From assembly GCA_002737595.1 (NCBI GenBank), contig NSHZ01000012.1, forward strand, positions 1 to 25,594: 25,594 bases of DNA, read 5' to 3'. The stretch comes from Actinomycetota bacterium. GTDB taxonomy: Bacteria; Actinomycetota; Actinomycetes; Nanopelagicales; Nanopelagicaceae. Positions 19,059 through 23,455 of the stretch are shown here, piece by piece. Within the stretch, counting starts at the first letter, position 1. The number at the start of each line of letters is the position of its first letter. Position numbers and translations under genes: made by a program. A model generated the notes under the pieces. It was not told where the DNA came from, did no database searches, and saw only the letters and a program-made list of their open reading frames with translations.

Positions 19059-20126
19059 CTATTGAGCGAGGATTTTGGTAATAAGCGCGCTGGCCAATCG
19101 GGCGCGCTCAGGAATGGCGGAGGCACTTGCCCACTCGTTCGCCGCATGGGCGCCTTCGCCGACAGCACCGATTCCATCGATAGTCGGTATCCCTAACGCG
19201 GCGGTGAAGTTTCCATCACTTGCGCCGCCCACCTCAGCGCTACCCAATTTTGGCATACCAAGTTCTTCTGCACACTTCACAGCCATTTCAAAGAGTCGAG
19301 CACTTGAAGAGGGATCAAGTGGTGTTCGATTGACGCCACCTTCTATCCGTACAGATGCACCACCGCTCGTGGTGCCCGCTAGGGATGTTATTTCAGCATG
19401 AACGCGACTCTGCTCAGCACTTGTGAAAGCCCGTACATCAATATCTAATTGTGCGAGCGCCGGCACGGTGTTAAGAGTGGTGCCTGAGTGCAATACGGTG
19501 GGTGTTACCGTGGTGCCAACGCTACTTTTCGCAGCAGCGAGAATTGCCGGGTAGAGCGTGGCAATTTCTAAGGTGGCGTTTATTCCTTTCTCCGGGTCGA
19601 GACCGGCATGCGCTGCTCTTCCCTCCACAATAACCCGATACATGGAGGTGCCTTTGCGCGCAGTCTTTAATTTTCCATCAAGGGATGCTTCAAAAACCAG
19701 AACGGCTTCTGCACTAGCTGCTATCTCTTCAATAAGCGCTCTCGAACATTTGCTGCCGGTCTCCTCATCCGTTGTCGCCAGGATGGTGACGCCATCACGA
19801 TTGGCAAGAGATTGAAGTGCATAGGCGGCTTGTACAAAGCCAGCTTTCATGTCGAAGACTCCTGGACCACGAATCACATCGCCACTCACCTGCCAGAGTG
19901 GTTCGAAGGAGCCGTGTGGCCAGACAGTGTCTAAGTGGGTGAGTAGTAGAACGCGCGGTGTGGCACTACCCCATCGCAAGGTGGGGCGTCCGAGAACATC
20001 CTTTACCTCACCTGGTGAACCCAGAAGTTCAGTGAGGATGGCATTTGCCTCATCGATCACTCTTCGGCAGGCAGCGAGATCTTCAGTGGGGGAGGAGATC
20101 TCCACGAGGCGACGAACGAAGTCCAT
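19059..20126 (-). CDS. M20-family amidohydrolase, probable N-acyl-L-amino-acid hydrolase
   Basis: A 355-residue di-zinc hydrolase of the M20 family (glutamate carboxypeptidase / ArgE / aminoacylase group). Probable metal and catalytic residues: H64 in LLTHLDTVW, with D66; D92 in GVFDMKAG; the glutamate pair in TTDEETGS (E121-E122); E146 in VLVFEASLDG; and a late histidine in GEGAHAANEW. The lid domain is present (MYRVIVEGRAAHAGL). No signal peptide, so it acts in the cytoplasm. The start is taken at ATG 20126 because conservation begins there (MDFVRRLVEISSPT); an ATG at 20165 would run into the divergent gene. It is divergent by 37 bases from the GNAT gene, whose partner is an N-acylamino-acid-racemase-like enzyme. 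Deacylation (desuccinylation) of N-acyl-L-amino acids is therefore proposed. Confidence 0.88.
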   Translation of the reverse strand: MDFVRRLVEISSPTEDLAACRRVIDEANAILTELLGSPGEVKDVLGRPTLRWGSATPRVLLLTHLDTVWPHGSFEPLWQVSGDVIRGPGVFDMKAGFVQAAYALQSLANRDGVTILATTDEETGSKCSRALIEEIAASAEAVLVFEASLDGKLKTARKGTSMYRVIVEGRAAHAGLDPEKGINATLEIATLYPAILAAAKSSVGTTVTPTVLHSGTTLNTVPALAQLDIDVRAFTSAEQSRVHAEITSLAGTTSGGASVRIEGGVNRTPLDPSSSARLFEMAVKCAEELGMPKLGSAEVGGASDGNFTAALGIPTIDGIGAVGEGAHAANEWASASAIPERARLASALITKILAQ

Positions 20127-20163
20127 ATGGTTATCTTGCCACTCGAAGTGGTTAAGTAGGTGC

Positions 20164-20961
20164 ATGGGCGAAGTCAGAGTCGAGATCCTCTCGGAGTTAC
20201 CGCGGCAACGCCTGGCTCGAGAGATCTTCGATCTGGTCTGGCCAGTAGATGAGGGCACCCAAATTACTCCTAACCTCTTGCAAGCCATGGTGCATAGCGG
20301 TGCCTACCTCTCTGGAGCTTTTATTGGTGATGATTGCGTGGGGGCGGCATTTGCTTTTCCTTCGAAAGGCAGCGACGACCATTTGCATTTGCATTCGCAC
20401 ATGGCAGGCGTACTCGATGCCTACCGCGATCGAAATATTGGGTATGTGCTCAAGGTTCATCAACGCGATTGGGCAATAGCAAATGGCTACGATTTAATTA
20501 CATGGACTTTTGACCCATTGGTTTCGCGCAATGCAAATTTCAATCTCACTAAACTCGGTGTCGAAATACCCTATTACTTTCGGGATTTTTATGGTCAGAT
20601 GCCGGATGCAGTAAACGCTGGCGATGCAAGTGATCGCGCGATGGCCTACTGGCACTTAAATTCAGCACGAACAAAGAGTGCACTTACTGGGGCGGCAAAC
20701 GCAAAATCAGATGCCCCACTTCTACTCGCTGAAATCCATGGAGCACCTGTCGCACAAGTAGTTACTTCGGAGGCGAAAGAAGTGCGCGTTGCCCTTCCTG
20801 GAAACATCACCGAGTTGCGCTCGCAGAATATAGAGCTTGCTCGGAATTGGCGTCAGCATGTTCGTGGTGCGCTAGAACCACGCATGGCATCAGGCTGGAA
20901 GATCACCGGATTTACTCAAGATCACTGCTACGTACTGGAGGAAAAAGATGCGCATTCATGA
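20164..20961 (+). CDS. COG3375-type GNAT, probable D-amino-acid N-succinyltransferase
   Basis: A 265-residue acyl-CoA N-acyltransferase. The CoA-binding turn is YRDRNIGYVLK (87-97), an RxxNxG variant of the usual RxxGxG, followed by QRDWA. The blocks ITWTFDPLVSRNANFN (112-127), KLGV, YYFRDFYG and GDASDRAMAYWHL are the hallmark of the COG3375 GNAT group that neighbours N-acylamino-acid racemases. In Geobacillus kaustophilus the corresponding enzyme succinylates D-amino acids; that activity is inferred here from family and context. The frame is open far upstream through the opposite gene, but ATG 20164 is the only sensible start. It overlaps the racemase gene by 14 bases. Confidence 0.85.
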   Translation: MGEVRVEILSELPRQRLAREIFDLVWPVDEGTQITPNLLQAMVHSGAYLSGAFIGDDCVGAAFAFPSKGSDDHLHLHSHMAGVLDAYRDRNIGYVLKVHQRDWAIANGYDLITWTFDPLVSRNANFNLTKLGVEIPYYFRDFYGQMPDAVNAGDASDRAMAYWHLNSARTKSALTGAANAKSDAPLLLAEIHGAPVAQVVTSEAKEVRVALPGNITELRSQNIELARNWRQHVRGALEPRMASGWKITGFTQDHCYVLEEKDAHS

Positions 20962-22045
20962 AATTGAGATTCGCCATGTGGGTGTGCCCTTGGTGCGTCC
21001 TTTCCGCACATCGTTTGGTACACAGACAGATCGAGATCTACTGATTCTCAAAGTCACCACAGATGTCGGCGATGGTTGGGCAGAGTGCGTCGCAATGTCA
21101 GAGCCACTCTACTCGCCGGAGTACACGCATGGCTGCGCAGATATGCTTGAACGTTTTCTAGTTCCAGCATTGCGAAAAGTTGGAGATTTTCGAGCCGAAG
21201 AGGTTGCCGATATCCTGAAGCCGTTCTTAGGACATCACATGGCTAAAGCGGCAATTGAAACCTCCCTCCTTGATGCAGAGTTGAAGCATGAAGGTCGTTC
21301 CTTTGCCTCATTCTTTGGCGCCGTAAATGATGAAGTCGATTGCGGCGTTTCAGTAGGAATTGCAAACAGCATAGATGCCTTACTCGAAGAGGTGGGGGAC
21401 TACGTTAATCAGGGGTATCGCCGCATCAAACTTAAGATTGAACCAGGCTGGGATATTGAGCCGGTTCGCACCGTCCGCGAAACGTGGCCAAAGATTCTCC
21501 TACAAGTCGATGCAAACCAGGCTTACTCGCGCGACGATGCCGCTCATCTCGCTGGACTCGATGAATTCAACTTACTTCTCATCGAACAACCGCTCGATGA
21601 GCATGATGTTCTCGGCCACGCATTACTTTCACGCGCCATTCAGACTCCCGTCTGCCTGGATGAATCAATTACCTCGTTGCAGTCAGCGCGTGATGCAATT
21701 GCAATGGAAGCAACGACGATTATCAACATAAAACCTGGTCGTGTAGGTGGATACTTTGAAGCGATCAAGATTCATGACTTCTGCGTTGAAGAAGGTATCC
21801 CAGTGTGGTGTGGCGGCATGCTCGAAACTGGAATTGGTCGCGCCGCAAATCTTGCACTTGCGGCTCTTCCTGGCTTTACGTTGCCGGGCGACACTTCTGC
21901 CTCTAATCGCTACTACTTGAGAGACATCACCACACCGTTCGTGATGGTGGATGGTCGCATTCGTGTGCCAAGTGGTCCCGGGATTGGTGTGGAGATCGAT
22001 CACGCATTCCTGGAGAGCGTTACCGTAAGCAAGCGAACGATGTAG
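20948..22045 (+). CDS. Enolase-superfamily N-acylamino-acid racemase / o-succinylbenzoate synthase-like
   Basis: A 365-residue enzyme of the MLE subgroup. Catalytic and metal residues are all present: K161-L-K163 in RRIKLKIEPG, D188 in QVDANQAYS, E213 in LIEQPLDE, D238 in VCLDESIT, and K262 in INIKPGRVGG, nearly the same numbering as the Amycolatopsis N-acylamino-acid racemase. The C-terminal VWCGGMLETGIGRAANLALA block is also typical of that group. The enzyme would racemise N-succinyl-amino acids by a two-lysine mechanism; homologues can also make o-succinylbenzoate for menaquinone. Its linkage to a GNAT and an M20 hydrolase, and the absence of men genes, favour the racemase role. GGAGG (20937-20941) sits 6 bases before ATG 20948. 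Confidence 0.93.
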   Translation: MRIHEIEIRHVGVPLVRPFRTSFGTQTDRDLLILKVTTDVGDGWAECVAMSEPLYSPEYTHGCADMLERFLVPALRKVGDFRAEEVADILKPFLGHHMAKAAIETSLLDAELKHEGRSFASFFGAVNDEVDCGVSVGIANSIDALLEEVGDYVNQGYRRIKLKIEPGWDIEPVRTVRETWPKILLQVDANQAYSRDDAAHLAGLDEFNLLLIEQPLDEHDVLGHALLSRAIQTPVCLDESITSLQSARDAIAMEATTIINIKPGRVGGYFEAIKIHDFCVEEGIPVWCGGMLETGIGRAANLALAALPGFTLPGDTSASNRYYLRDITTPFVMVDGRIRVPSGPGIGVEIDHAFLESVTVSKRTM

Positions 22046-22192: not shown

Positions 22193-23455
22193 ATGAAATC
22201 CATTGTTAAGTTCAGGATGGCTGTAGCACTTTTGTCCGCAACTGGATTAATTCTCCCGATTATTCCTGCAGAGGCTAAGACCGCCGCTGCCGCACTCAAG
22301 GTCGGCACTATATTTCCGCTCACTGGTGAACTAGAGGCTTACGGCCCTTCACTTGCAAGAGCAGCAGCATTAGGAATTACTCAAGTCAATGCTGCAATAA
22401 AGAAGAATAAGTTGACCGGATCTTGCACGTTAGCTGGAAGTGAAGATGACAAAACGGGCGCAGCGGGAGGTGTAGCTGCAGCAACTAATCTTGTAAAAAA
22501 GAAGAAGGCTAACATCGTCATTGGATCGATGGCCTCTTCCGTTACTTTGGCTATCGCGAAAGCAGTCACAGTTCCAAGCAACGTCATTTTGATTAGCCCA
22601 TTATCTTCCAGCAAGAACATTACAAGTTTGGCTGACAAGGACACCGTGTTTAGAACTTTTCCATCAGATCTCAAGCAAGCTAAAGCTCTTGTTGCATCGA
22701 TGGCTTTGAACTTGGGTGAAGATGCCACAATCAGTATTGGAAGTTTTGAAACTGATTTTGATAACGCTCTTGTGGCAGATTTTAAGAAAGCCTGGATCGC
22801 AAATGGTGGAAAAATAGGCGCCGAAGTAAGTTGGAATTCTGATGTAACATCATTAAAACCCCAAGCAGCGCAACTAGTCGATGGTGCTCCAGACGGTTGG
22901 CTATTGATCGACAATCAAAGCACAATCAGTGATTTAGTTCGCGCATTATCGAGCACCGGCAAATGGGACCCCGCTAGCACATTCACTACAGATATTTTAA
23001 ACTCGAAGGCACTCATTGCCTCTGTCGGTGCCAAGTATCTAGAAGGCATGCGGGGAGTTACTTCAACTTTCGCTGAGGAAAATCTCGATTCATTCCAAAC
23101 TCTTTTTGAATCAAGATTTCCTGATCTTACTTTCACAGGGTACGAGCCACTTGCATACGATGCTGCGGTTCTGGCTTGCTTGGCAAGTGTCTCCGCAAAG
23201 AGTGTGGATACCAAGAATTTGATTATTGCGCTTCGCAAAGTCTCTGGTCCTAAAGGAACCAAGTATTCTTGGCAGAAACTTGACGCAGCGGTGAAGGCGA
23301 TTGCTGCTGGGAAACCGGCAACTTATGTGGGGGCTTGGTCGGAGGTAGATTTTGATAAGCAGGGTGATCCGGGATTAACGTCCTTTGATCTCTTCACCGT
23401 GATCTCTGGAATCCCAGAAATTCTGCCCGAGGATAAATTTGTGGTGAAGGGTTAA
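22193..23455 (+). CDS. ABC-type branched-chain amino-acid-like substrate-binding protein
   Basis: A 420-residue exported receptor of the periplasmic-binding-protein type I (LivJ-like) class. The signal peptide MKSIVKFRMAVALLSATGLI is followed by a likely signal peptidase I site after PAEA (residue 28). The mature part begins LKVGTIFPLTGELEAYGPS, typical of the family, and continues with the two alternating lobes (SASSVTLAIAKAV-like and GYEPLAYDAAVLA segments). There is no lipobox cysteine, unusual for a Gram-positive binding protein. No permease or ATPase gene is present, so it is an orphan receptor. A strong GGGAGG precedes ATG 22193. It lies just after the amino-acid racemase cassette on the same strand, so an amino-acid ligand, possibly including D-forms, is plausible but unproven. 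Confidence 0.9.
   Translation: MKSIVKFRMAVALLSATGLILPIIPAEAKTAAAALKVGTIFPLTGELEAYGPSLARAAALGITQVNAAIKKNKLTGSCTLAGSEDDKTGAAGGVAAATNLVKKKKANIVIGSMASSVTLAIAKAVTVPSNVILISPLSSSKNITSLADKDTVFRTFPSDLKQAKALVASMALNLGEDATISIGSFETDFDNALVADFKKAWIANGGKIGAEVSWNSDVTSLKPQAAQLVDGAPDGWLLIDNQSTISDLVRALSSTGKWDPASTFTTDILNSKALIASVGAKYLEGMRGVTSTFAEENLDSFQTLFESRFPDLTFTGYEPLAYDAAVLACLASVSAKSVDTKNLIIALRKVSGPKGTKYSWQKLDAAVKAIAAGKPATYVGAWSEVDFDKQGDPGLTSFDLFTVISGIPEILPEDKFVVKG

What the first reader, a model, noticed from the sequence alone, without database searches (positions are those of the whole stretch)
19059..22045. Three-gene D- to L-amino-acid conversion cassette in a streamlined planktonic actinobacterium
An M20 hydrolase, a COG3375 GNAT and an enolase-superfamily racemase with all catalytic residues (K161/K163/D188/E213/D238/K262) are packed together, the first divergent by 37 bp and the last two overlapping. 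This matches the Geobacillus kaustophilus set: N-succinylation of D-amino acids, racemisation of the N-succinyl product and desuccinylation of the L-form. It would let a small-genome cell harvest D-amino acids from peptidoglycan debris. The family match and motifs are seen; the acyl group and the direction are inferred.
Basis: partly seen in the sequence, partly recalled or inferred. Interest (0 to 1): 0.78.

Follow-up and report, generated by a model that had tools for sequence, protein, structure and literature searches.

The report
D-to-L amino acid recycling genes
A freshwater actinobacterium carries a known kind of three-enzyme set that probably turns mirror-image amino acids, such as those left over from cell walls, into usable ones; the pathway is already known, but here its last enzyme is of a different type from the classic one.

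Summary
The three genes are real and under purifying selection. The racemase is an NSAR/OSBS-type enolase-superfamily enzyme, close to the Amycolatopsis enzyme, with every catalytic residue and the arginine at the R266 position. The acyltransferase has a GNAT fold and is homologous to the GNAT beside NSAR in Geobacillus. In 60 related genomes the same 23 hold GNAT and racemase; in all 19 same-family cases they lie side by side. A separate MenC occurs in all 37 same-family genomes, so the racemase is not needed for menaquinone. This supports D-amino acid N-acylation, racemisation and L-specific deacylation.

Two corrections. First, the M20 hydrolase is not the Geobacillus type: it is carboxypeptidase-G2-like, found near the racemase in 0 of 69 mainly Bacillota loci. 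Second, it is a near-universal family gene (36 of 37 genomes) at a helicase-flanked site, with or without the pair; only 6 of 19 pairs adjoin it. Its role in the pathway is supported by class-wide co-localisation: 50 of 73 M20 loci outside the family lie within 3 kb of racemase or GNAT.

The pathway is known (Sakai 2006). Acyl group, direction and substrates are untested. A new member of a known kind; modest interest.

The parts
19059..20126 (-). M20-family metallo-hydrolase (carboxypeptidase-G2-like); proposed N-acyl-L-amino acid deacylase. H64, D66, D92, E121, E122, E146, H327 align with carboxypeptidase G2; their metal and catalytic roles are recalled.
   Evidence: PF01546 80.5 bits, PF07687 57.7 bits; best NCBIfam PRK07338 226 bits, below its 357 cut-off; carboxypeptidase G2 alignment; the seven residues identical in 43 of 43 M20 rows over 340 aa, some genes being present twice.
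20127..20163 (.). 37-bp gap between the divergent start codons of M20 and GNAT
   Evidence: Sequence; the same 37-bp gap in congeners G002 and G004 by coordinates. No promoter-like site found in it.
20164..20961 (+). GNAT-fold N-acyltransferase (265 aa) with a ~100-residue C-terminal part; proposed acyl-CoA:D-amino acid N-acyltransferase
   Evidence: No Pfam/NCBIfam hit; many relatives carry PF00583; AlphaFold model pLDDT 93.1 matches GNAT structures; homologous to the GNAT beside NSAR in Geobacillus and other Bacillota and to GNATs of Deinococcus, Streptomyces and Sulfitobacter plasmids.
20948..22045 (+). NSAR/OSBS-type racemase of the enolase superfamily (365 aa)
   Evidence: TIGR01928 316.8 bits against a cut-off of 200.65; Amycolatopsis NSAR/OSBS 1sja 473.6 bits; K161, K163, D188, E213, D238, K262, R265 present.

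Best explanation
The genes encode a D- to L-amino acid conversion route of the NSAR kind. The GNAT transfers an acyl group (probably succinyl, from succinyl-CoA) to the amino group of a D-amino acid. The enolase-superfamily racemase interconverts the N-acyl-D and N-acyl-L forms with the lysine pair K163/K262 and a metal held by D188/E213/D238. The M20 metallo-hydrolase removes the acyl group from the L form, pulling the flow towards the free L-amino acid. Shown: the families, the catalytic residues, the near-constant pairing of GNAT with racemase, a separate MenC in relatives, and the class-wide association of this M20 type with the pair. Inferred: the acyl group, D-specificity of the GNAT, L-specificity of the M20, the substrate range, and a source in cell-wall or peptide debris.
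For: (1) Racemase closest to characterised NSAR/OSBS enzymes, with all catalytic residues and the arginine equivalent to R266. (2) In 60 related genomes the same 23 have GNAT and racemase and 37 have neither (racemase counted at 430 bits or more, next best 241); in 19 of 19 same-family cases the GNAT is directly upstream on the same strand. (3) Outside the family 65 of the 67 racemase genomes (of 222 in the class draw) have the GNAT; 2 more have the GNAT alone. (4) The window's M20 type occurs in 49 of those 67 racemase genomes against 16 of 155 without it; 50 of 73 M20 loci lie within 3 kb of racemase or GNAT. (5) A dedicated MenC in 37 of 37 family genomes; relative G048 has racemase, GNAT and M20 but neither MenC nor menD over the cut-offs. 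(6) Neighbours in distant relatives fit uptake and cleavage of D-containing peptides: in G056 oligopeptide ABC transporter, S9-peptidase/beta-lactamase-family serine hydrolase, M20, GNAT, racemase, PucR regulator; similar order in a Streptomyces plasmid; MurR/RpiR regulators beside it in Priestia, Cytobacillus and two Roseobacteraceae. (7) M20, GNAT and racemase in a row in three Geobacillus/Parageobacillus loci.
Against: The M20 is present in 36 of 37 family genomes, 17 of which lack the pair, so it has or had another job. Only 6 of 19 pairs in the family lie next to it. It is not of the subfamily found beside NSAR in Bacillota. The pairing is not universal further off: among plasmid records 64 hold a racemase relative and 45 a GNAT relative, and 11 of 69 mainly Bacillota loci have no GNAT within 4 kb. 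Some family members act as OSBS or on N-acetyl substrates (PMC8142540, passages), so the family does not fix the substrate. No assay or expression evidence was available.
Confidence: 0.66

Rival explanations
1. Only GNAT and racemase form the pathway; the adjacent M20 is a family housekeeping hydrolase (peptide or N-acyl-amino acid hydrolase) that happens to be the insertion site, and another enzyme deacylates the N-acyl-L-amino acid.
For: M20 in 36 of 37 family genomes regardless of the pair; between the XPB-like helicase and the Helicase_C_3 gene in all 5 sites without the pair that were read; 13 of 19 family pairs lie elsewhere; on the M20 tree the pair label needs 9 changes, scattered though fewer than the shuffled mean of 14.4.
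Against: The same M20 type is associated with racemase/GNAT across the class, often in the same direction (34 of 46 GNAT-M20 neighbours within 1 kb), which chance insertion does not explain.
Confidence: 0.2
2. The racemase is the o-succinylbenzoate synthase of menaquinone synthesis, as automatic annotation would name it.
For: TIGR01928 (menC) is passed; similar genes in public plasmid records are labelled menC. G044 and G053 have menD but no NF002782 MenC over the cut-off, so there the homologue may act as OSBS.
Against: A separate MenC next to menD exists in 4 of 4 congeners and MenC in 37 of 37 family genomes; the gene is paired with the GNAT in 19 of 19 family genomes that have it; G048 has it without menD over the cut-off.
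Confidence: 0.05
3. The set handles N-acetyl (or other N-acyl) amino acids rather than N-succinyl ones, as detoxification or salvage of D-amino acids or of exogenous N-acyl-amino acids. Not exclusive of the best explanation as to the order of steps.
For: The Amycolatopsis enzyme also racemises N-acetylmethionine (PMC8142540 table); the closest folds of the GNAT model are acetyltransferases; the M20 is nearest to carboxypeptidase G2 among solved structures.
Against: For the Amycolatopsis enzyme the review's table gives kcat/Km of 350-1,111 with N-acetylmethionine and 42,000 with N-succinylphenylglycine (different amino acids); the Geobacillus pathway uses succinyl-CoA (recalled from Sakai 2006; paper not held).
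Confidence: 0.12

Closest known systems
Geobacillus kaustophilus D- to L-amino acid pathway: succinyl-CoA:D-amino acid N-succinyltransferase, N-succinylamino acid racemase, L-desuccinylase (Sakai et al. 2006, doi 10.1021/bi060230b; title seen in a reference list; content recalled)
   Same: Homologous GNAT and racemase, adjacent and in the same order in three Geobacillus/Parageobacillus loci (L154, L155, L157); an M20 hydrolase next to them.
   Different: The hydrolase belongs to another M20 subfamily (carboxypeptidase-G2-like, not TIGR01891) and is divergent rather than co-directional. G. kaustophilus itself was not among the fetched loci.
Amycolatopsis NSAR/OSBS (N-acylamino acid racemase; PDB 1sja, 4a6g, 7s8w)
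   Same: About 473 bits over nearly the full length; identical catalytic lysines, metal ligands and (in 1sja) the R266 position.
   Different: An orthologue-like protein of another actinobacterial lineage; activity not measured.
Actinomycete M20-GNAT-NSAR operons (Streptomyces sp. SYP-A7193 plasmid, G056)
   Same: The same three families, including the carboxypeptidase-G2-like M20 (49% identity to the window's in both).
   Different: There with transporter and serine-hydrolase genes upstream and a regulator downstream (PucR domains in G056; weak AdeR/CdaR matches in Streptomyces); M20 co-directional. In the window none of these lies next to the pair.
Actinobacterial MenC (NF002782)
   Same: Enolase superfamily, OSBS chemistry.
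   Different: A separate gene in all 37 family genomes; the window racemase scores 53.5 bits against its 288-bit cut-off.

Membership tests
NSAR/OSBS subfamily (enolase superfamily) | Catalytic K-x-K and second lysine, metal ligands D/E/D | tested here: met
   K161, K163, D188, E213, D238, K262, aligned with 1sja
NSAR/OSBS subfamily (enolase superfamily) | Arginine equivalent to Amycolatopsis R266 (importance for NSAR specificity recalled) | tested here: met
   R265; the 7s8w sequence carries Q there
NSAR/OSBS subfamily (enolase superfamily) | Profile score over the TIGR01928 cut-off | tested here: met
   316.8 against 200.65 bits
NSAR/OSBS subfamily (enolase superfamily) | Racemase activity on N-succinyl-amino acids | not testable with these tools
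   Needs protein
Geobacillus-type D-to-L pathway | GNAT homologous to the NSAR-linked GNAT | tested here: met
   Of the best 80 loci kept from a capped scan, 69 with full flanks were counted: the window GNAT matches in 58 at E<=1e-6
Geobacillus-type D-to-L pathway | Hydrolase of the same M20 subfamily as in Bacillota | tested here: not met
   M20 of three Bacillota plasmid loci: TIGR01891 260-269 bits; window M20: 40.9 bits against a cut-off of 153.75; window M20 matches 0 of 69 loci at E<=1e-6 within their flanks
Geobacillus-type D-to-L pathway | Succinyl-CoA and D-specificity of the GNAT, L-specificity of the hydrolase | not testable with these tools
   Needs assays
GNAT superfamily | GNAT fold | tested here: met
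   Foldseek E 3.9e-8, TM-score normalised by target 0.84 to 6yzz
Menaquinone OSBS (MenC) | Only OSBS of the genome | tested here: not met
   Separate MenC in 37 of 37 family relatives; the window's own genome is not held

The most novel reading that the evidence does not exclude
Actinomycetes run the D-to-L pathway with a hydrolase of another M20 subfamily (carboxypeptidase-G2-like) in place of the Bacillota aminoacylase. In Nanopelagicaceae that hydrolase became a core gene, and a moving GNAT-racemase pair is plugged into genomes patchily, sometimes right beside it, as a nutrient-niche switch in abundant freshwater bacteria.
Probability: 0.45. Interest if true: 0.45.

Novelty: new member of a known kind. 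Interest (0 to 1): 0.32.

Why it matters
If true, part of a freshwater bacterial family can feed on D-amino acids from cell-wall and peptide debris without oxidases, and the trait varies between genera (19 of 37 genomes examined), so it could mark a niche difference. It also shows an annotation trap: such racemases are labelled menC in public records. The different hydrolase is a testable case of enzyme replacement within a known pathway.

Tried and rejected
Menaquinone role: rejected for this family from MenC and menD searches. Substrate-binding protein gene 22193-23455 as a fourth member: rejected, because it is missing at this site in G004, G011 and G017. Acyl donor from the GNAT structure: the nearest folds are generic acetyltransferases, so no decision. 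Promoter scan: one promoter-like site against 2.6 expected, not in the gap, so nothing learnt. Sequence search of PDB with the GNAT: none with one sequence, weak GNAT matches with the alignment. Prior report in acI/Nanopelagicaceae: none recognised in the listings (listings capped at 10-20 rows, 'nanopelagic' with 'D-amino acid', found 0 papers). Most subscription papers are missing from that library, so this is no proof of absence.

Rows left out: M20 tree 43 rows, without the split M20 of G001 and partial or duplicate copies; racemase tree 33 rows, without distant enolase-superfamily homologues and duplicate copies; without the 24 family genomes; without 11 of 80 loci with short flanks.
Full report
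What is there. Three intact genes lie at 19059-22045: an M20 hydrolase (-), a GNAT (+) divergent from it by 37 bp, and an enolase-superfamily racemase (+) overlapping the GNAT by 14 bp. dN/dS against three congeners is 0.03-0.20 in 9 of 9 comparisons. The window's own assembly is not held; the nearest genome shares 30% of sampled words, and some GNAT relatives at about 50% identity are named 'Candidatus Nanopelagicaceae bacterium' by their sources. All genome-wide statements below are about relatives; 'family' means f1 (G001-G037, 37 genomes).

Racemase. TIGR01928 is passed (316.8 against 200.65 bits), and the closest solved structures are Amycolatopsis NSAR/OSBS enzymes. K161, K163, D188, E213, D238, K262 and R265 are present. 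Across 55 aligned rows (several genes occur twice because loci overlap) the metal ligands and K262 never vary; K161, K163 and R265 are kept in 53, and both exceptions are copies of one distant homologue, G038.

GNAT. No Pfam or NCBIfam model matches it, but many relatives carry PF00583 and the predicted structure (pLDDT 93.1) matches GNAT folds over about 160-170 columns. It is homologous to the GNAT beside NSAR in Geobacillus, Parageobacillus, Priestia and Lysinibacillus and to GNATs on Deinococcus, Sulfitobacter and Streptomyces plasmids that carry a racemase.

Pairing. In 60 related genomes, the same 23 hold the racemase (430 bits or more) and the GNAT; 19 of 37 family genomes have both, side by side, and 18 have neither. 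At the looser limit of E 0.001, 50 of 60 genomes have some enolase-superfamily match to the racemase. In a draw of 246 genomes of the class (limits E 1e-90 racemase, 1e-20 GNAT, 1e-50 M20), 67 of 222 outside the family have the racemase, 67 the GNAT, 65 both; 57 of 83 racemase loci have the GNAT within 3 kb. The 83 loci include second, more distant copies. Among plasmid records, 64 hold a racemase relative (E 1e-30) and 45 a GNAT relative (E 1e-8); Listeria, Enterococcus, Cytobacillus and Pseudochrobactrum are in the first listing and not in the second, so the pairing is not universal, at least on one replicon.

The M20 is the surprise. It keeps seven residues of carboxypeptidase G2 (metal and catalytic roles recalled), identical in 43 of 43 rows. 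It occurs in 36 of 37 family genomes (the one without, G006, is 78% complete), with or without the pair. Five sites without the pair were read (G007, G013, G019, G021, G032): in all five it sits between an XPB-like helicase gene and a Helicase_C_3 gene. The pair lies between M20 and the Helicase_C_3 gene in genus g1 (window; G002 and G004 read), in G011 and in G017. By coordinates G001 and G003 also have it next to the M20, so 6 of 19 family pairs adjoin it. In the M20 tree genera g1, g8 and g14 form a clade (98/95), so adjacency in the family may be one event, with the pairs of two g8 genomes (G025, G036) elsewhere; the racemase tree does not group those two with G011. Horizontal movement or differential loss would both fit.

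Is the M20 part of the pathway? Outside the family the same M20 type occurs in 49 of 67 racemase genomes and in 16 of 155 others, and 50 of 73 M20 loci lie within 3 kb of racemase or GNAT. This supports membership. Against it stands the family-wide presence without the pair. In the class draw 24 of 24 family genomes have the M20 and 7 of 24 the racemase. The scan scored only the best candidates per genome, and relatedness was not corrected for, so the Fisher p-value should not be read as a probability.

Not the Geobacillus hydrolase. M20 proteins beside or near NSAR on Priestia, Lysinibacillus and Cytobacillus plasmids are TIGR01891 amidohydrolases (260-269 bits); the window M20 and those of the Streptomyces and Arthrobacter NSAR loci are nearest to the carboxypeptidase-G2-like models PRK07338/PRK06133 (below their cut-offs) and score 32-41 bits with TIGR01891. 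One of the 69 (L177) is an Arthrobacter with the Bacillota-type set.

Menaquinone. A separate MenC is in 37 of 37 family genomes (35 over the cut-off) and menD over the cut-off in 36 of 37. In 4 of 4 congeners the two are adjacent; in G002 they lie about 15 kb from the M20 on the same contig. Relative G048 has racemase, M20 and GNAT with neither MenC nor menD over the cut-offs. G044 and G053 have menD but no such MenC, so the homologue may double as OSBS there.

Context for D-substrates. In G056 the order is oligopeptide transporter, serine hydrolase with S9-peptidase and beta-lactamase domains, M20, GNAT, racemase, PucR-domain regulator. A Streptomyces plasmid has ABC ATP-binding protein, serine hydrolase with weak dipeptidyl-peptidase and class C beta-lactamase matches, M20, GNAT, racemase and a helix-turn-helix protein with weak AdeR/CdaR matches. 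G048 has Liv-type transporter genes and a PucR-domain regulator in the cluster. MurR/RpiR regulators lie near the genes in Priestia, Cytobacillus and two Roseobacteraceae, and a MurR relative in 40 of the 69 loci. This fits peptide or cell-wall debris as a source but proves nothing about the window; in the family loci where the pair lies elsewhere the neighbours were mixed (MFS transporters, arginase family, zinc dehydrogenase, PTS permease, glutamine amidotransferases). An acI study reports reliance on peptides and saccharides and amino acid transporters; the words searched for (D-amino, racemase, D-alanine, peptidoglycan) do not occur in its main text (PMC5574706, passages).

Literature. The pathway was published in 2006 (Sakai et al.; not held; title seen in the reference list of PMC8762209; content recalled). 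Kinetics of NSARs are listed in PMC8142540 (passages). PMC4922564 lists NSAR among enolase-superfamily families (passages). PMC12363236 (passages) surveys D-amino acid genes in trench microbes; 'N-acyl' does not occur in its main text. PMC3960212 (abstract) proposes racemases as consumers of D-amino acids.

Verdict. Observation confirmed; interpretation largely right for two genes, plausible but unproved for the third, which is of another subfamily. A known kind of pathway in a lineage for which no report was found in the held library: modest interest.

Noticed in passing
window 22193-23455: A Peripla_BP_6 substrate-binding protein gene follows the racemase in the window and in G002 but is missing at this site in G004, G011 and G017; no permease genes beside it in the window.
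   Followed up: partly
G001:C36:3596-4060, G002:C139:8820-9284: Two congeners carry a second, more distant homologue of the GNAT (44% over 159 residues) on a contig other than the racemase's.
   Followed up: no
L177 (Arthrobacter beigongshangensis): An actinobacterium with a Bacillota-type set: relatives of the Priestia MurR/RpiR regulator, the Bacillota M20, GNAT and NSAR in a row, suggesting transfer between phyla.
   Followed up: no
L057 (Deinococcus radiodurans plasmid MP1): NSAR and GNAT with two short substrate-binding-protein genes between them, so the racemase-GNAT neighbourhood extends to Deinococcota with a transporter part.
   Followed up: no
public plasmid records: NSAR-type genes, several beside a GNAT, are labelled menC / o-succinylbenzoate synthase; the TIGR01928 menC model also covers the window gene.
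   Followed up: partly
L024/L100 (G038): A 38% identical homologue lacks the K161, K163 and R265 equivalents, and its genome has no GNAT match: probably another function.
   Followed up: no
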